Shown: one piece after another, positions 3,582 through 46,020 of the stretch | How the letters are laid out: each line of letters opens with the position of its first letter | Position numbering within the stretch: position 1 is the stretch's first letter | Assembly (NCBI RefSeq): GCF_000685075.1 | Contig: NZ_BAYD01000003.1 | Location: 62,001 to 126,000, forward strand | Length of the DNA: 64,000 bases | Origin: Paraburkholderia oxyphila NBRC 105797 | GTDB lineage: Bacteria > Pseudomonadota > Gammaproteobacteria > Burkholderiales > Burkholderiaceae | Direction: 5' to 3' | Made by a program: the position numbers and the translations under genes | Notes under the pieces: generated by a model | What the model was told of the DNA's origin: nothing | The model's database searches: none | The model's input: the letters and a program-made list of their open reading frames with translations, nothing else

Positions 3582-5048
3582 ATGAACATCATCGAACCCG
3601 GCATCCGCAATCTGGCGACCGCGAAGGACTTGCTCCTCACGCCCTACGGCCTCGACGAGGCAGTGCTCACGCGCACGCTCGGCGAGATCTTCACGCACCG
3701 CGTCGACTACGCCGACCTCTACTTCCAGACCACGCGCAGCGAGGCCTGGAGCCTCGAGGAAGGCATCGTCAAGTCGGGCAGCTTCAGCATCGACCAGGGT
3801 GTCGGCGTGCGCGCCGTGTCCGGCGAGCGCACCGCCTTCGCCTACTCCGACGACCTCTCGCCCGAGGCGATCCGGCAGGCGGCCATCGCCACGCGCTCGA
3901 TCGCGCAGGCGGGCGGCGGCAAGCAGAAGATCAAGGTGGCCACCTCGCTCAAGGGCATCGCGGGCCGCGACCTCTATCTGCCTTCCGACCCGCTTTCCTC
4001 GCTCGACGCCACCGAGAAGGTGAAGCTGCTCGAGCGCATCGAGCAGATGGCGCGCAGCCGCGACCCGCGCATCACCCAGGTGATGGCCGCGCTCGCGGGC
4101 GAATACGACGTGGTGCTGGTCGCGCGCAGCGACGGCGCGCTCGCCGCCGACATCCGCCCGCTCGTGCGCGTCTCGGTCACCGTGATCGCCGAGCAGAACG
4201 GCCGCCGCGAGATCGGCAACGGCGGCGGCGGCGGACGCTTCGACTACGCCTATTTCACCGACGACGTGCTCTCGAAGTACGTCGACGACGCCGTGCACGC
4301 GGCGCTCGTCAATCTGGAAGCGCGTCCGGCCCCGGCCGGCGCGATGTCCGTGGTGCTCGGCCCGGGCTGGCCCGGCGTGCTGCTGCACGAGGCCATCGGC
4401 CACGGGCTCGAGGGCGACTTCAACCGCAAGGGCTCGTCGGCGTTCGCGGGCCAGATCGGCCAGCGCGTGGCCGCCAAGGGCGTGACCGTGGTGGACGACG
4501 GCACGCTGCCCAACCGCCGCGGCTCGCTCAATATCGACGACGAAGGCAACCCCACGCAGTGCACGACGCTGATCGAGGACGGCATCCTCAAGGGCTACAT
4601 CCAGGACTCGCTCAACGCGCGCCTCATGAAGATGCCCGTGACCGGCAACGCGCGCCGCGAATCGTATGCCGCGCTGCCGATGCCGCGCATGACCAACACC
4701 TACATGCTCAACGGCGACAGGGATCCGCAGGAAATCATCGCTTCGGTGAAGAACGGGCTGTATGCCGTGAACTTCGGCGGCGGCCAGGTCGACATCACGA
4801 ACGGCAAGTTCGTGTTCTCGGCCTCCGAGGCGTACATGATCGAGGACGGCAAGATCACCTACCCCGTGAAGGGCGCGACGCTGATCGGCAGCGGCCCGGA
4901 ATCGCTCAAGTACGTGAGCATGATCGGCAACGACATGCGCCTCGACTCGGGCGTGGGCGTGTGCGGCAAGGAGGGCCAGAGCGTGCCCGTGGGCGTGGGC
5001 CAGCCGACGCTGCGCATCGACCGCATGACGGTGGGGGGCACGGTCTAG
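3582..5048 (+). CDS. tldD: Metalloprotease TldD
   Basis: TldD is the zinc-dependent subunit of the TldD/TldE protease, which trims peptides such as modified-peptide precursors and the CcdA antitoxin. The metal-binding motif HEAIGH followed by GLEGD is present in the middle of the 488-residue protein, and the length is normal for the family. I place the start at ATG 3582 ([10 protein letters not shown]). An in-frame TTG at 3555 would add nine residues that do not look like the family N-terminus. The gene is 95 bp downstream of the amidase and ends at TAG 5046-5048. A decayed DUF1016 fragment on the opposite strand reads right up to its stop. Confidence 0.95.
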
Positions 5049-5476
5049 GGGCCCACGGCCCCCAGGTCGACAGTGAGGTTGCGCGGCGCCAGCCAGATCG
5101 GTTTCGGCGCCGCGTTGAACAGCGGCAGACGCTCGGAAAAATTTGTCACGGCCTGGCCCGTGCGCTCCAGCCAGCGGGTTTCAATGTGGATGTTCAACAC
5201 ATTACGTGACCACCCATGCACCAATGCCGCCTGCGCATAGGCCAGGCGCTGCTCCGGCTGCTTCAGTCTCGTCGACAGGACCAGATTATGTCCCCAGGGC
5301 AATTGTCCAACAGCCTGTTGGACAAACTCGGGAACCGGCCAGGCCTCGGCAAATGCCCGCATGTACATGAGGTTGGAGCGGGAAAAGCCCTTCATTTCCG
5401 GAAAGGCCGTGCGCAGGTCATGCGCGAGGCGCTCGATGACCTTGGCACCCCAGCCTTGCTCGGCCTGTCGCTGCAA
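5045..5476 (-). pseudogene. Remnant of a DUF1016/YhcG-family nuclease gene
   Basis: The translation is clearly the N-terminal winged-helix part of a DUF1016 (YhcG) protein, with RQAEQGWGAKVIERLAHDLR, MKGFSRSNLMYMRAFAEAWP, VGQLPWGHN and HGWSRNVL. The family's C-terminal PDDEXK nuclease domain is absent: the frame ends in an unrelated tail at 5045, against the tldD stop. The family's first residues are also missing, because an in-frame stop lies just upstream of the only possible start, a TTG at 5476. Intact relatives are about 350 residues and are often found in defence or mobile contexts. I read this as a relic of a mobile or defence gene that once sat between tldD and aroG. Confidence 0.7.
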
Positions 5477-5639: not shown

Positions 5640-5669
5640 TTGCCAGCCACGAGAAGCTCGGGTTATAAA
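5640..5669 (+). promoter_or_regulatory. Predicted sigma-70 promoter of the aroG leader
   Basis: A -35 box TTGCCA (5640-5645) and a -10 box TATAAA (5664-5669) are separated by 18 bp, each matching consensus at five of six positions. Transcription would begin near 5676, about 40 nt before the leader-peptide ATG at 5717. This placement fits an attenuated leader transcript for aroG. Confidence 0.6.
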
Positions 5670-5716
5670 GGCAATCACCCTTTTCGACGTACGAACGTTT
5701 CGACACGCAACCCGCC

Positions 5717-5785
5717 ATGTTCGCCACGAAGTTTTACTTTTACTTCTTTTGGTATCTCAGACCGCTGGCGGATCGAGAGGGTTGA
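5717..5785 (+). CDS. aroG leader peptide (Phe/Tyr-rich attenuation peptide)
   Basis: This is a 22-codon ORF from ATG 5717 to TGA 5783-5785. Codons 6-13 read KFYFYFFWY after the initial MFAT, giving a run of Phe, Tyr and one Trp codons, the end products of the pathway that AroG starts. No good ribosome-binding site is visible. The last sense codons (Leu-Ala-Asp, 5765-5773) contain CTGGCGG, which is also the downstream arm of the terminator that follows. This is the arrangement of a ribosome-stalling attenuator. The peptide itself is expected to have no function beyond being translated. Confidence 0.85.
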   Translation: MFATKFYFYFFWYLRPLADREG

Positions 5786-5845
5786 CAGTACGCGCAGGAA
5801 CCCGAATACACGAGAAACCGCCAGCAAAGTCTGGCGGTTTTTTTT
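5759..5845 (+). terminator. Transcription attenuator of aroG (antiterminator/terminator)
   Basis: The terminator stem is AAACCGCCAG (5815-5824) with CTGGCGGTTT (5831-5840), loop CAAAGT, then Ts to 5845. The competing antiterminator is GCTGGCGG (5764-5771), inside the leader-peptide codons, pairing with CCGCCAGC (5818-5825). It is helped by AGAC (5759-5762) with GTCT (5829-5832). A ribosome stalled on early Phe/Tyr codons would leave 5764-5771 free to form the antiterminator. A ribosome that reaches the stop at 5783 would cover it and let the terminator form about 95 nt before the aroG start. Confidence 0.85.
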
Positions 5846-5940
5846 CGTCCTTACCCCATACGAGCCTCACTTTCATCTAACCGATTTTCGAAGCACCGTC
5901 TGAGAGACGCACGCTACACACAGGATCAGGAGAAACGACC

Positions 5941-7014
5941 ATGCCCCCGCACAACACCGACGATGTCCGCATTCGCGAACTCAAGGAACTCACGCCGCCC
6001 GCACACCTGATCCGCGAGTTCCCGTGCTCGGAAGCCGCCTCCACGCTGATTTTCGAGTCGCGTCAGGCCATGCACCGCATCCTGCACGGCATGGACGACC
6101 GCCTGATCGTCATCGTCGGTCCGTGCTCGATCCACGACACCACGGCCGCGCTCGAATACGCGAACAGGCTCGTGGCGCAGCGCGAGCGCTTCAAGAACGA
6201 ACTCGAGATCGTGATGCGCGTGTACTTCGAAAAGCCGCGCACGACGGTGGGCTGGAAGGGTCTCATCAACGACCCGTACATGGATAACAGCTTCAAGATC
6301 AACGACGGCCTGCGCACCGCGCGCGAGCTGCTCGTCTCGATCAACGAGCTCGGCCTGCCGGCGGGCACCGAGTACCTCGACATGATCAGCCCGCAGTACA
6401 TCGCCGACCTCGTTTCGTGGGGCGCGATCGGCGCGCGCACGACCGAGTCGCAGGTGCACCGCGAGCTGGCCTCGGGGCTCTCGTGCCCGGTCGGCTTCAA
6501 GAACGGCACGGACGGCAACGTGAAGATCGCCGTGGACGCGATCAAGGCCGCCTCGCAGCCGCACCATTTCCTCTCGGTGACGAAGGGAGGCCACTCGGCC
6601 ATCGTCTCGACGGCCGGCAATGAGGACTGCCACGTGATCCTGCGCGGCGGCAAGACGCCGAACTACGACGCGCAAAGCGTGGATGCCGCGTGCAGCGACA
6701 TCGGCAAGGCGGGTCTCGCCGCGCGCCTGATGATCGACGCGAGCCATGCGAACAGCTCGAAGAAGCACGAAAACCAGATTCCAGTGTGCGCGGACATCGG
6801 CCGCCAGGTTGCGGCGGGCGACGAGCGCATCATCGGCGTGATGGTGGAGTCGCACCTCGTGGCGGGCCGCCAGGACCTCAAGGAAGGCTGCGAGCTGACC
6901 TATGGCCAGAGCATCACCGATGCGTGCATCGGCTGGGATGAAAGCGTGGGTGTGCTCGAAGGGCTCGCCGAGGCGGTCAAGCAGCGCCGTGTCGCGCGCG
7001 GCTCGGGCAACTGA
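5941..7014 (+). CDS. aroG: 3-deoxy-7-phosphoheptulonate (DAHP) synthase, AroG type
   Basis: This class I DAHP synthase of 357 residues condenses phosphoenolpyruvate with erythrose 4-phosphate, the first step towards chorismate, Phe, Tyr and Trp. Family hallmarks are GPCSIHD, the KPRTTVGWKGLINDP substrate-binding loop and DASHANSSKKHENQ near the C-terminus. The ATG at 5941 follows a good ribosome-binding site (AGGAG). Expression is probably governed by the upstream attenuator with its Phe/Tyr leader peptide, which suggests a Phe- or Tyr-responsive isozyme. Feedback specificity cannot be read from the sequence with certainty. Confidence 0.96.
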   Translation: MPPHNTDDVRIRELKELTPPAHLIREFPCSEAASTLIFESRQAMHRILHGMDDRLIVIVGPCSIHDTTAALEYANRLVAQRERFKNELEIVMRVYFEKPRTTVGWKGLINDPYMDNSFKINDGLRTARELLVSINELGLPAGTEYLDMISPQYIADLVSWGAIGARTTESQVHRELASGLSCPVGFKNGTDGNVKIAVDAIKAASQPHHFLSVTKGGHSAIVSTAGNEDCHVILRGGKTPNYDAQSVDAACSDIGKAGLAARLMIDASHANSSKKHENQIPVCADIGRQVAAGDERIIGVMVESHLVAGRQDLKEGCELTYGQSITDACIGWDESVGVLEGLAEAVKQRRVARGSGN

Positions 7015-43460: not shown

Positions 43461-43490
43461 TCCACTGACGCACTCCAACACCGTCAATCA

Positions 43491-43792
43491 CCCCGGCCTA
43501 AAGGCCGGAGCTTGTGGGAGGTTCCACTAGCTCGAGTTTGACCAGACCCAGTGCCGTGAAGCACTACGTTGTGCAGAAGACAGTAGACCCACCGTCGAAT
43601 GCTTCCTCAGTTCGACGCTCTGGAAGTCGCAGCAGCAGACACGCCCCGGGGAGGCACGAAACGGGCTGTGACCGAAGCGAAAGCTTCACCTGCTGCACAA
43701 CATGGTCGAGGGGAGCCAGGCCTTATAGCCTGCGTCACAAGGCCCGTAAGGGCAACCGCGCCGGACAGCTTCCGGGGCGCAACATAACTGGA
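43491..43792 (+). ncRNA. IscB omega RNA (HEARO-type)
   Basis: The roughly 300 nt between the left-end hairpin and the iscB start have the expected position and character of an IscB omega RNA. They are GC-rich, multi-hairpin and without a conserved reading frame. Family knowledge places the guide at the 5' end, copied from the left flank, so the current guide would come from the DNA just before 43491, downstream of yggS. The boundaries are estimated. Confidence 0.7.
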
Positions 43793-45200
43793 GTGACAGT
43801 GGCGGTTTTTGTGCTGGACCGGAAGGGCAAGCCGGTGATGCCGTGCAGCGAGAAGCGGGCGAGGTTGCTCCTCGAGCGTGGCCGCGCACGCGTGCATCGT
43901 GTTATACCCTTTGTTATCCGGCTCGTTGACCGTCAGGCCGACTCTTGCACCCTGCAATCCCTGCGAATCAAGCTTGACCCCGGCAGCACGGCGACAGGCA
44001 TGGCGCTGGTGCGTGACACCGAGACTGTGGACGCATCCACTGGCGAGATTCAGCGCGGCGCGGCGGTACTCAATCTGTTCGAGTTGGTCCATCGCGGCCG
44101 GCAAATCAGCGAGGCACTGACTGCACGTCGCTCGATGCGCCGGCGGCGACGGGGTAACCTGCGCTACAGGGCACCGCGTTTTCTGAATCGTACTCGCCCG
44201 GCGGGGTGGCTTGCGCCGTCCCTGCAGCACCGGGTCGATACCACAATGGCATGGGTCAGGCGGCTGATGCGTTGGGCACCGGCTGCGGCCATCTCAAGCG
44301 AGCTGGTGCGTTTCGACATGCAGGCGCTTGAGAACCCGGAAATCAGTGGCGTCGAATACCAGCAGGGCACGCTGGCTGGCTACGAGGTCCGCGAGTATCT
44401 GCTGGAGAAGTGGAACCGCAGGTGCGCGTACTGCGATGCCTCATCTGTACCGCTGCAAATCGAGCATATCGTGGCACGGGCGCGCGGTGGCTCGAACCGG
44501 GTGAGCAACCTGACGCTGGGCTGCGAGCCCTGCAATCTGGACAAGGGTGCGCAGCCGGTCGAGGTGTATCTCGTGAAGGCGCCGAAGCGAATGGCGGCGA
44601 TTCTGGCTCAGGCGAAGCGCCCGCGGAAGGACGCGGCGGCGATCAATGCCACGCGCTGGGCGCTCGCCAATGTGCTTCGTGCAACCGGACTCCCAGTCGA
44701 GCTCGCCTCTGGCGGGCGGACAAAGTTCAACCGCGTGACGCTCGGCGTGCCCAAAACGCACGCTCTCGATGCCGCTTGCGTCGGCGCATTGTCGGGCATG
44801 ACGAGATGGCAGAGGCCGACCCTGTCGGTGAGCTGCACGGGCCGTGGCAGTTACCAGCGCACACGGCTGGACAGGTTTGGTTTCCCACGCGGCCACCTGA
44901 CCCGGGACAAGCGGATACAGGGGTTTCAAACCGGAGACCTGGTGCGCGCCGAGGTGCCGTCAGGCAAGAAGGCCGGCACACATGTGGGCCGCGTGGCGGT
45001 ACGCGCCACCGGTTACTTCAATATCCAGATGGCTGGTCGCGTGGTGCAAGGCATCGCGCGTCGTCATTGTCAGTTGATTCAGCGTAGCGACGGCTACGGA
45101 TATCCAAGGATAGCCTTTCAAAGAGGAGATGCGGGAGAAGGCCGTGCTTCGCACGGCGCGCTATCCATCCCCGGCCTGAAGGCCGAGGTTTCCCGCGCAA
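43491..45200 (+). mobile_element. tnpA-less IS200/IS605-like element carrying iscB
   Basis: About 1.7 kb is inserted between yggS and proC. The left end has the hairpin CCGGCCT/AGGCCGG (43493-43508). The right end has a hairpin at 45141-45157, then GCGCTATCCATCC, a second hairpin (CGGCCT/AGGCCG, 45172-45185) and a GAGGTTT tail. The only gene is iscB, with its omega RNA upstream. There is no Y1 transposase, so movement would need one in trans. The exact ends are estimates: the right tip could be anywhere from about 45191 to 45204. Confidence 0.8.
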
Positions 45201-45208
45201 CAGGATGA
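43793..45208 (+). CDS. iscB: RNA-guided endonuclease IscB
   Basis: This 471-residue IscB is an ancestor-type relative of Cas9. The N-terminal PLMP-like domain is FVLDRKGKPVMPCSEKRARL. RuvC-I is KLDPGSTATGMAL (Asp62), followed by the Arg-rich bridge helix around RRSMRRRRRGNLRYR. RuvC-II is SSELVRFDM (Glu170). The HNH domain runs from CAYC to EHIVARARGG (His225) and CEPCN. RuvC-III is KTHALDAACVGAL (Asp326). All catalytic residues are present. The start is GTG 43793 or GTG 43799. The stop TGA overlaps the ATG of proC, so proC may now be translated by coupling to iscB. Confidence 0.93.
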   Translation: MTVAVFVLDRKGKPVMPCSEKRARLLLERGRARVHRVIPFVIRLVDRQADSCTLQSLRIKLDPGSTATGMALVRDTETVDASTGEIQRGAAVLNLFELVHRGRQISEALTARRSMRRRRRGNLRYRAPRFLNRTRPAGWLAPSLQHRVDTTMAWVRRLMRWAPAAAISSELVRFDMQALENPEISGVEYQQGTLAGYEVREYLLEKWNRRCAYCDASSVPLQIEHIVARARGGSNRVSNLTLGCEPCNLDKGAQPVEVYLVKAPKRMAAILAQAKRPRKDAAAINATRWALANVLRATGLPVELASGGRTKFNRVTLGVPKTHALDAACVGALSGMTRWQRPTLSVSCTGRGSYQRTRLDRFGFPRGHLTRDKRIQGFQTGDLVRAEVPSGKKAGTHVGRVAVRATGYFNIQMAGRVVQGIARRHCQLIQRSDGYGYPRIAFQRGDAGEGRASHGALSIPGLKAEVSRATG

Positions 45209-46020
45209 AAATTGCCTTCATCGGCGGCGGCAACATGGCCGCTGCAATCATCGGCGGCTTGATCCGCAAGGGCGTGAGCGCCGGCGACCTGTACGCGATC
45301 GACCCTAGCGAAGACGCGCGCAAACGCAGCGCGGATCAGTTCGGCATCCGCACCGGCGCCGCCGCCGATGCCGCGCTCGCCGAATACGACGCGGTCCTGC
45401 TCGCCGTGAAGCCGCAGATCGCCAAGGCGGTGGCGCAATCGATCGCGCCGCATCTGGGCGCGCATCAGGTCGTGATCAGCATCATGGCGGGCATCCGCAT
45501 CGAAGACCTCTCGCGCTGGCTCGACGGCCACGCACGCATCGTGCGCACGATGCCCAACACGCCCGCGCTGATCGGCATGGGTGCGACGGGCCTGTGCGCC
45601 GGCAGTGGCGTGGACGCGGCGGGCCGCGAATTGGCCTCGAACGTGCTCGGTGCGGTCAGCCAGACCGTCTGGTTCGACGACGAAAGCAAAATCGACGCGG
45701 TCACGGCCATCTCGGGCAGCGGCCCGGCCTACGTGTTCTATTTCATCGAGGCCCTCGAAGAGGCCGCCCGCCAGCTCGGCATGGACGAGCAGCAAGGCCG
45801 CGCGCTCGCCATCGCCACCTTCACGGGCGCGGCGCAGCTCGCGCTGCAATCCGACGAGCCGCCAGCGGTGCTGCGCGAGCGCGTGACGTCCAAGGGCGGC
45901 ACCACCGCGGCGGCGCTCGCTTCGTTCGACGCATCGGCCATCAAGGACGCGATCGTGCGCGGCGCGCTGGCCGCGGATGCGCGTGCGAAGGCGATGGGCG
46001 AGGAGTTCGGCAAGCAGTAA
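45205..46020 (+). CDS. proC: Pyrroline-5-carboxylate reductase
   Basis: ProC, 271 residues, makes proline from pyrroline-5-carboxylate with NAD(P)H. The N-terminal Rossmann motif IAFIGGGNMAAAIIGGL is present, as are VRTMPNTPALIGMGATGLC, the signature AVTAISGSGPAYVFYFIEAL, and VTSKGGTTAAALASF near the C-terminus. Its own upstream region has been replaced by the iscB element. AGG directly abuts the ATG and no properly spaced ribosome-binding site remains. Translation may therefore depend on iscB reading through to the overlapping stop. Confidence 0.97.
   Translation: MKIAFIGGGNMAAAIIGGLIRKGVSAGDLYAIDPSEDARKRSADQFGIRTGAAADAALAEYDAVLLAVKPQIAKAVAQSIAPHLGAHQVVISIMAGIRIEDLSRWLDGHARIVRTMPNTPALIGMGATGLCAGSGVDAAGRELASNVLGAVSQTVWFDDESKIDAVTAISGSGPAYVFYFIEALEEAARQLGMDEQQGRALAIATFTGAAQLALQSDEPPAVLRERVTSKGGTTAAALASFDASAIKDAIVRGALAADARAKAMGEEFGKQ

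What the first reader, a model, noticed from the sequence alone, without database searches (positions are those of the whole stretch)
5640..5940. Complete Phe/Tyr attenuator in front of aroG
A promoter, a 22-codon leader peptide whose codons 6-13 are almost all Phe, Tyr or Trp, an antiterminator and a T-tailed terminator lie in the right order. The segment GCTGGCGG inside the peptide's last codons repeats the terminator's downstream arm, and an AGAC/GTCT pair strengthens the alternative fold. I know of no described attenuator with this peptide for a DAHP synthase in this group, but I could not search.
Basis: partly seen in the sequence, partly recalled or inferred. Interest (0 to 1): 0.85.

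Follow-up and report, generated by a model that had tools for sequence, protein, structure and literature searches.

The report
Aromatic-codon leader switch for aroG
In front of aroG, the gene for the first enzyme of aromatic amino acid synthesis, lies a tiny open reading frame with eight phenylalanine, tyrosine or tryptophan codons in a row and a hairpin followed by a run of T, and together they likely act as a switch that would let aroG be read mainly when those amino acids run short; the same arrangement is found in front of this gene in many families of betaproteobacteria.

Summary
The finding is real and its interpretation is well supported by comparative sequence; there are no expression data here. 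Window 5640-5845 holds a predicted promoter, a 22-codon ORF whose codons 6-13 are all aromatic (FYFYFFWY), and a T-tailed hairpin 98 nt before aroG. The box CTGGCGG near the end of the ORF repeats the hairpin's downstream arm. Of 131 DAHP-synthase upstream regions read from the order, 60 carry aromatic leader, hairpin and box; 0 of 2620 shuffles do. Peptides diverge, the box sits in all three reading frames, and its neighbouring base covaries with both hairpin arms. Inferred mechanism: a ribosome waiting at the aromatic codons leaves the box free to form an antiterminator; one at the stop covers it. A new member of the leader-peptide attenuators; DAHP-synthase precedents exist in Corynebacterium and Acholeplasma. 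In 62 of 141 leaders a -10 element lies so near the ATG that the leader mRNA is predicted leaderless.

The parts
5640..5669 (+). Predicted sigma-70 promoter TTGCCA-N18-TATAAA
   Evidence: Sequence; TATAAA with a -35 of at least 4 of 6 matches at 16-18 nt in 35 of 36 own-family members, TTGCCA or TTGTCA in 32 of 36; TATAAA ends 47 nt before the leader ATG here and 34-73 nt in the 36. Not listed by the consensus scan. Start site not measured.
5709..5727 (+). Candidate region 1 (CAACCC 5709-5714 and GUUCGCCA 5720-5727) that can pair with region 2 and the following GGGUUG (5780-5785)
   Evidence: MFE folds; across 36 representatives only weakly better than shuffles (6 of 200 shuffles as good).
5718..5786 (+). 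Leader peptide ORF MFATKFYFYFFWYLRPLADREG with stop
   Evidence: Sequence; an ATG ORF with at least 5 of 9 aromatic codons is present in 62 of 131 upstream regions; such an ORF (ATG, GTG or TTG start) accompanies 84 of 124 pattern matches.
5733..5756 (+). Control codons 6-13: TTT TAC TTT TAC TTC TTT TGG TAT (F Y F Y F F W Y)
   Evidence: Sequence; the last aromatic codon starts 11-18 nt before the GGCGG box in 131 of the 139 attenuators (of 141) with an exact GGCGG.
5765..5772 (+). Region 2 (antiterminator 5' arm) GCUGGCGG, last base of codon 16 to first base of codon 19
   Evidence: Copy of the terminator 3' arm; covaries with region 3.
5813..5824 (+). Region 3: terminator 5' arm AGAAACCGCCAG, shared with the antiterminator
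5831..5845 (+). Region 4: terminator 3' arm CTGGCGGTTTTT and T tract
   Evidence: the variable pair is A-U in 17 and G-C in 17 of 36 representatives.
5928..5932 (+). Shine-Dalgarno-like AGGAG of aroG
   Evidence: Sequence.
5941..7014 (+). aroG, DAHP synthase, the controlled gene
   Evidence: NF006723, 605 bits against cut-off 568; Pfam PF00793.

Best explanation
The aroG leader holds a 22-codon ORF with eight aromatic codons in a row, a GGCGG box in its last codons and a T-tailed hairpin, the box and the hairpin's downstream arm both being complementary to the same middle segment, and it is most likely a ribosome-mediated transcription attenuator that would couple DAHP synthase synthesis to the supply of charged Phe, Tyr and possibly Trp tRNA. 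Inferred steps: RNA polymerase starts about 40 nt before the leader ATG and a ribosome follows it into the leader. If charged aromatic tRNAs are scarce, the ribosome waits within codons 6-13; region 2 (5765-5772) stays outside its footprint and pairs with region 3 (5818-5825) before region 4 is made, so the terminator cannot form in time and aroG is transcribed. If they are plentiful, the ribosome runs to the stop at 5784 and covers region 2, region 3 pairs with region 4, and transcription ends at the T tract near 5845. Without a ribosome, region 1 may hold region 2 and favour termination (weakest step).
For: Conservation of the whole architecture over the order: 60 of 131 upstream regions against 0 of 2620 shuffles. 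Pattern scan without any peptide requirement: of 124 matches, 78 have a leader with at least 5 of 9 aromatic codons and aroG within 700 nt, 6 have such a leader at the edge of the fetched DNA, and none of the 30 matches away from aroG has one. Covariation: base 5' of GGCGG against base 3' of CCGCC is T-A 64, C-G 49, others 25 (7 of them U-G wobbles) of 138; on 36 representatives own region 2-3 duplexes average -21.7 against -19.9 kcal/mol for permuted partners, 2 of 20000 permutations as good; the antiterminator covariation score is reached in 2 of 500 shuffles and by no slid version. The box occurs in all three frames of the ORF (47, 3, 89 of 139); relatives L014, L016, L018, L020 carry another frame after TGG with an unlike tail, and in those printed (L014, L018, L020) the RNA is the same. 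Geometry fits a ribosome footprint: last aromatic codon 11-18 nt before GGCGG in 131 of 139, stop 15-26 nt after it in 121 of 139. Folding with a masked ribosome (RNA from the ATG) gives antiterminator probability 0.99-1.00 with the A site at codons 2-13, 0.29 at 14 and 0 from 15 to the stop. Leader Phe codons are 417 TTT to 214 TTC, against 127 to 723 in the aroG stretches held in the same loci. Only one match in the 10.6-Mb genome covers the whole model, E 1.3e-19; the second DAHP synthase gene has no such leader (L114).
Against: No expression data. At equilibrium the full-length RNA prefers the terminator at every ribosome position (P at least 0.98), so the switch must be kinetic. With the predicted 5' end included, antitermination is uneven along the run (0.41 at codons 10 and 11, 0.95 at 12, 0.01 at 13). 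Without a ribosome the window RNA from its ATG would form the antiterminator (P 1.00); only with the upstream RNA does it fall to 0.12. In 11 of 36 representatives a ribosome at the stop still leaves region 2 open (P at least 0.5), and in 4 of 36 an aromatic stall does not raise P above the stop value. Own duplexes beat the mean of swapped ones in only 24 of 36. RNAalifold finds only a 5-pair core of the antiterminator, and the number of pairs with change on both sides (418 of 500 shuffles as high) and of further pair types (491 of 500) do not exceed shuffles; the signal comes from two pairs, the outer of which is unpaired in 22 of 36. Region 1 is weak. Distribution is patchy: leaders in 13 of 32 sampled families (corrected as told below).
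Confidence: 0.9

Rival explanations
1. The leader senses one amino acid only (most likely Phe), the Tyr and Trp codons being passengers, as reported for the Corynebacterium aroR leader. The mechanism is otherwise the same.
For: F is in 141 of 141 leaders and most frequent (mean 4.5 per leader; Y 2.0, W 0.8); in C. glutamicum Tyr availability had no effect on the operon behind an FYF leader (PMC11802643, passage read).
Against: Y in 134 and W in 113 of 141 leaders; among aromatic codons that start 12-30 nt before the box there are 433 F, 180 Y and 110 W.
Confidence: 0.4
2. The main role is in trans: the peptide or the short terminated RNA acts on other transcripts, as rnTrpL and peTrpL do in Sinorhizobium.
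For: A terminated leader RNA with an intact ORF is predicted; precedent in PMC7298713 (passages read).
Against: Peptide tails diverge and differ in reading frame while the RNA box stays, so selection acts on the aromatic codons and the RNA rather than on a peptide product. A trans role of the RNA is not excluded.
Confidence: 0.07
3. A constitutive terminator that blocks read-through, with a chance ORF before it.
For: The hairpin is strong; equilibrium folding always prefers it.
Against: 0 of 2620 shuffles give leader + terminator, against 60 of 131; the box in the leader tail covaries with the hairpin.
Confidence: 0.02

Closest known systems
Corynebacterium glutamicum aroR leader of aroF (Neshat 2014, not read; as described in passages of PMC11802643 and PMC4046766)
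   Same: Leader peptide with Phe and Tyr codons before a DAHP synthase gene; transcription attenuation by ribosome stalling.
   Different: Actinobacterium; FYF only; described as responding to Phe and not to Tyr. Here 8 aromatic codons including Trp. The aroR sequence was not fetched or compared.
uORFC-13-1 motif before aroF in Acholeplasma (PMC8632094, passages read)
   Same: Upstream ORF with Phe codon(s), terminator, DAHP synthase gene.
   Different: 24 representatives from Acholeplasma and environmental sequences; has an RBS; a computational prediction; different lineage. The same passage says that attenuation of E. coli aroF was hypothesised earlier (Camakaris 1980, not read).
E. coli pheL-pheA and trpL-trp attenuators (named in PMC11802643; the four-segment layout is recalled)
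   Same: Four-segment logic: control codons, segment 2 in or after the ORF tail, shared segment 3, terminator.
   Different: Different gene and peptides; no Rfam leader model matches; usually no Shine-Dalgarno here.
Sinorhizobium meliloti trpL / rnTrpL (PMC7298713, passages read)
   Same: Leader RNA starting at the ATG of the leader peptide; many betaproteobacterial aroG leaders are predicted to do the same.
   Different: Trp leader before trpE(G); in the window's own family the -10 lies 34-73 nt before the ATG.

Membership tests
Ribosome-mediated (leader-peptide) transcription attenuator | Short ORF with a cluster of codons for the end-product amino acid(s) | tested here: met
   8 of 8 aromatic codons at 6-13; at least 5 of 9 in 62 of 131 upstream regions.
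Ribosome-mediated (leader-peptide) transcription attenuator | Intrinsic terminator between leader ORF and gene | tested here: met
   by reading, folding and my own finder; the tool's consensus scan did not list it.
Ribosome-mediated (leader-peptide) transcription attenuator | Mutually exclusive antiterminator sharing the terminator's 5' arm | tested here: met
   Regions 2, 3 and 4 covary; two of the five measures do not exceed shuffles.
Ribosome-mediated (leader-peptide) transcription attenuator | Spacing such that a stalled ribosome frees segment 2 and one at the stop covers it | tested here: met
   Window: yes. Relatives: 131 of 139 and 121 of 139 within the stated ranges; 11 of 36 representatives leave segment 2 open at the stop.
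Ribosome-mediated (leader-peptide) transcription attenuator | Segment 1 that sequesters segment 2 in absence of translation | tested here: inconclusive
   Predicted in the window with the upstream RNA included; weak across representatives (6 of 200 shuffles as good).
Ribosome-mediated (leader-peptide) transcription attenuator | Read-through rises on starvation and needs translation of the leader | not testable with these tools
   Needs RNA measurement.
Rfam leader and riboswitch families | Match to a curated covariance model | tested here: not met
   No match at gathering scores in the region; with E up to 1 only RcsR1, 18.2 bits against a gathering score of 60, E 0.23.
C. glutamicum aroR leader | Sequence homology with the aroR leader | not tested
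   aroR sequence not fetched.

The most novel reading that the evidence does not exclude
A widespread, old, pan-aromatic attenuator: betaproteobacteria gate the entry step of the shikimate pathway with one leader peptide that reads Phe, Tyr and Trp tRNA charging together, and in many families transcription starts at the leader's own AUG, so that a leaderless mRNA loads a ribosome at once and couples it to RNA polymerase without a Shine-Dalgarno or a 5' untranslated region.
Probability: 0.4. Interest if true: 0.65.

Novelty: new member of a known kind. Interest (0 to 1): 0.5.

Why it matters
It gives a ready, testable control element for the first step of aromatic amino acid synthesis in a large bacterial group (Paraburkholderia, Burkholderia, Caballeronia, Cupriavidus, Variovorax, Polaromonas and Thiobacillus are among the titles of leader-bearing pattern hits) for which the ten answered literature searches showed none. 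The 141 distinct variants collected here, with different peptides, frames and tails, are a natural data set for how ribosome position sets RNA folding, and the predicted leaderless leaders pose a direct question: how is coupling started without a Shine-Dalgarno? It could also serve the engineering of aromatic compounds in Cupriavidus or Paraburkholderia.

Tried and rejected
Rejected: AGAC/GTCT as a conserved strengthening pair. Rejected: a second full copy of the element in the genome; of 17 model matches at E up to 1 only one covers the whole model, and the next best (L251) is an ordinary gene-end hairpin by inspection (150 of 4216 first-look candidates were scored). Rejected: most of the 88 of 369 class genomes with a model match. 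Of the 29 new loci from that call (L258-L286), the ones with aroG are L258 and L260 (own order) and L259, L261, L262, L263 (outside the order); the other 23 have no aroG. My script tried ATG starts only and found no leader in L263; one search shows one with a GTG start. Matches that got no locus were not looked at.

Counts to read with care. Upstream regions: all places listed were fetched, eight weak places (47-52% identity) and most genus paralogues (about 25) were not. Of the 62 ATG leaders, 60 pass the full test; L025 (one base missing in the Phe run) does not, nor does one more. One search counts as carriers the 60 plus L025 and L095 (4 of 9 aromatic). Its printed totals (119 genomes, 33 families, f1 36 of 43) count seven genus genomes twice and list f1 and f1b apart; corrected by hand: 112 genomes, 62 carriers, 32 families, 13 with a carrier (8 all, 5 mixed), 19 with none, f1 36 of 38.

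Led nowhere: RNAalifold on the antiterminator piece alone finds only the core, the MAFFT flanks being out of register. A homologue search with the leader peptide was not possible (query too short). No leader-peptide model in NCBIfam or Pfam matches five typical peptides (one chance line, E 0.18). No AroG tree was made, so gain or loss of the leader along the phylogeny is open.

Rows dropped: of 124 pattern matches, 30 without aroG, 5 before aroG with fewer than 4 of 9 aromatic codons, and 4 with GTG or TTG starts (L135, L199, L213, L245) were left out of the 141-member set; 146 entries were de-duplicated to 141 (58 from upstream regions, 83 from the scan). L049 and L055 have no exact GGCGG and are outside the 139.

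Full report
What is in the window. One search shows, on the + strand, TTGCCA-N18-TATAAA (5640-5669), a 22-codon ORF (5718-5786) MFATKFYFYFFWYLRPLADREG whose codons 6-13 are F Y F Y F F W Y, a box GCTGGCGG in its last codons (5765-5772), a hairpin AGAAACCGCCAG/CTGGCGGTTTTT with eight T (5813-5845), and aroG at 5941 with AGGAG 8 nt before its ATG. aroG is a class I DAHP synthase (NF006723 above cut-off; PF00793). Upstream genes are yhdP (cut by the window's start), a nitrilase-family gene and tldD. The consensus scan listed neither the promoter nor the terminator; I infer from its stated rules that this is because TATAAA lacks the final T and the A-U pairs run the stem into the T tract. The pattern hit L209, titled Paraburkholderia sp., has a 97% identical AroG and the identical leader peptide, so the window is likely from Paraburkholderia (inferred).

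Conservation. AroG was searched in 59 relatives and in 120 genomes of the order (in the latter 78 of 120 had a match at E 1e-130). From these, 131 upstream regions were read, paralogues included. 62 have an ATG leader of 10-40 codons with at least 5 of 9 aromatic codons; 60 of these also have a terminator and a copy of at least five bases of its 3' arm. In 2620 dinucleotide shuffles, 24 had such an ORF and none had ORF plus terminator. All 35 genomes of the window's genus and one of another genus of its family (G153) carry it, one of them (L025) with a one-base deletion in the Phe run; two small-genome members of the same family do not. Over 112 genomes it is present in 13 of 32 families: in all sampled genomes of 8, in some of 5, in none of 19 (totals corrected by hand as told under Tried and rejected). 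The second DAHP synthase gene of the genome (L114) and the eight paralogue regions fetched from six other genus genomes (L123-L130) have none.

Scan without a peptide requirement. 88 lie within 700 nt upstream of aroG; of these 78 have a leader with at least 5 of 9 aromatic codons, 5 have 4 of 9, 5 fewer. Six more have a leader at the edge of the fetched DNA. Of the 30 matches away from aroG none has a leader of 5 or more. Of the 84 leader-bearing matches, 76 have titles that name Betaproteobacteria, Burkholderiales, or (recalled placement) families and genera of them; four titles are uninformative (L153, L219, L243, L249) and four name other groups: Solimonas sp. SE-A11 (L225), a Lysobacterales MAG (L196), a Kiloniellaceae genome (L242) and a Terrimicrobiaceae MAG (L245, possibly mis-binned) (titles, list). 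A covariance model run on 369 genomes of the class gave full-length, aroG-linked matches with aromatic leaders in four genomes of two families outside the order (L259, L261, L262, and L263 with a GTG start); 88 of the 369 genomes had some match at E 0.01 and most looked at were bare terminators.

What is under selection. Over 141 distinct attenuators (58 from the upstream regions, 83 from the scan), F is present in all, Y in 134, W in 113, while the tails differ widely. The GGCGG box lies in frame 0, 1 and 2 of the ORF in 47, 3 and 89 of 139 cases. In L014, L016, L018 and L020 the tail after TGG reads ASQTAGGSRGV, because of one extra base, while the RNA ATCTCAGACCGCTGGCGGATCGAGAGGG is the same as in the window (seen for L014, L018 and L020). 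So the run is kept as codons and the tail as RNA. Phe codons are TTT in 417 of 631 leader cases but in 127 of 850 cases in the aroG stretches (many of them partial) held in the same loci: the leader prefers the codon that the gene avoids.

Alternative stems. The base next to the box covaries with region 3: T-A 64, C-G 49, all others 25 of 138; region 3 against region 4: A-T 73, G-C 62, others 3 of 138. On 36 representatives (75% clusters), own region 2-3 duplexes average -21.7 against -19.9 kcal/mol after permutation; 2 of 20000 permutations do as well, though own beats the mean of swapped in only 24 of 36. On alignment A2 the antiterminator helix forms standard pairs in 85.8% of cells, at best 56.5% when slid, and its covariation score is reached by 2 of 500 shuffles; the number of pairs with change on both sides and of further pair types does not exceed the shuffles, the signal coming from two pairs (13 and 8 cells), of which the outer is unpaired in 22 of 36. 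RNAalifold supports the terminator (variable pair A-U in 17 and G-C in 17 of 36), and of the antiterminator only the core.

Ribosome geometry. The last aromatic codon starts 11-18 nt before GGCGG in 131 of 139, and the stop lies 15-26 nt after it in 121 of 139. Folding the window RNA from its ATG, before region 4 exists, with a masked footprint gives an antiterminator probability of 0.99-1.00 for A-site codons 2-13, 0.29 at 14 and 0 from 15 to the stop, but also 1.00 with no ribosome. With the predicted 5' end included it is 0.12 without a ribosome, 0.98-1.00 at codons 2-6, 0.41-0.95 at 7-12 and 0.01 at 13. Over 36 representatives the mean is 0.85 with an aromatic stall, 0.28 at the stop and 0.41 with no ribosome; it is higher at the stall than at the stop in 32 of 36, and in 11 of 36 the ribosome at the stop leaves the box open. 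The full-length equilibrium fold prefers the terminator throughout in the window, so the switch would be kinetic, as in other attenuators (recalled). A region 1 that would sequester region 2 is predicted in the window but only weakly supported over the representatives (6 of 200 shuffles as good).

How the leader is started. Only 5 of 141 (3 of 36 representatives) have a purine-rich Shine-Dalgarno-like tetramer before the ATG. In 62 of 141 (16 of 36 representatives) an extended -10 (TGNTANNNT) ends 6-9 nt before the ATG, and TANNNT does so in 72 of 141 (20 of 36). That predicts transcription starting at or within a few bases of the leader ATG, a leaderless leader, as reported for S. meliloti trpL (PMC7298713, passages read). 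In the window's own family TATAAA ends 34-73 nt before the ATG (36 of 36, 47 nt in the window), with a -35 in 35 of 36, and the window's leader has no Shine-Dalgarno.

Literature. Ten searches were answered; their listings were seen. Passages were read in PMC11802643, PMC4046766, PMC8632094, PMC7298713, PMC2965389 and PMC5343134; none was read whole. DAHP synthase attenuators are described in Corynebacterium (aroR) and predicted in Acholeplasma; none was seen for Betaproteobacteria, and the main text of the attenuator survey PMC2965389 does not hold the words aroG, aroF, DAHP or phenylalanine. The library holds open-licence papers only, so subscription work (for example comparative attenuator surveys of the early 2000s, recalled) may mention it.

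Verdict. The scope (13 of 32 sampled families of the order), the mixed Phe/Tyr/Trp run and the predicted leaderless leader are the parts that go beyond the described cases.

Noticed in passing
window 43483-43721 (+) and ORF 43514-45208 (+): HEARO RNA (RF02033, 101.8 bits) overlapping the start of an ORF with RRXRR and HNH domains: it looks like an IsrB-type OMEGA locus (name recalled), just before a pyrroline-5-carboxylate-reductase-like gene at 45205-46020.
   Followed up: partly
window 5045-5476 (-): 143-aa ORF with most of a DUF1016_N domain (PF17761) between tldD and the aroG promoter, perhaps the remnant of an inserted gene.
   Followed up: no
L025 (upstream of aroG): One T missing in the Phe run: the leader frame changes and its stop falls inside the terminator hairpin; sequencing error or a natural loss.
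   Followed up: no
L199 (Candidatus Burkholderia humilis): The three-segment pattern stands before aroG, but no ATG leader with an aromatic run was recognised; possible decay in a symbiont.
   Followed up: no
62 of 141 leaders, e.g. L098, L107, L131, L134, L159: Extended -10 ending 6-9 nt before the leader ATG and almost no Shine-Dalgarno: predicted leaderless leader mRNA.
   Followed up: partly
L259, L261, L262, L263 and L225: aroG-linked aromatic leaders outside the order (L225 titled Solimonas); L263 has a GTG start. Inheritance or transfer not tested.
   Followed up: partly
leaders of 141 attenuators: Phe codons are TTT in 417 of 631 leader cases but in 127 of 850 in the neighbouring aroG stretches: codon choice is reversed in the control run.
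   Followed up: partly
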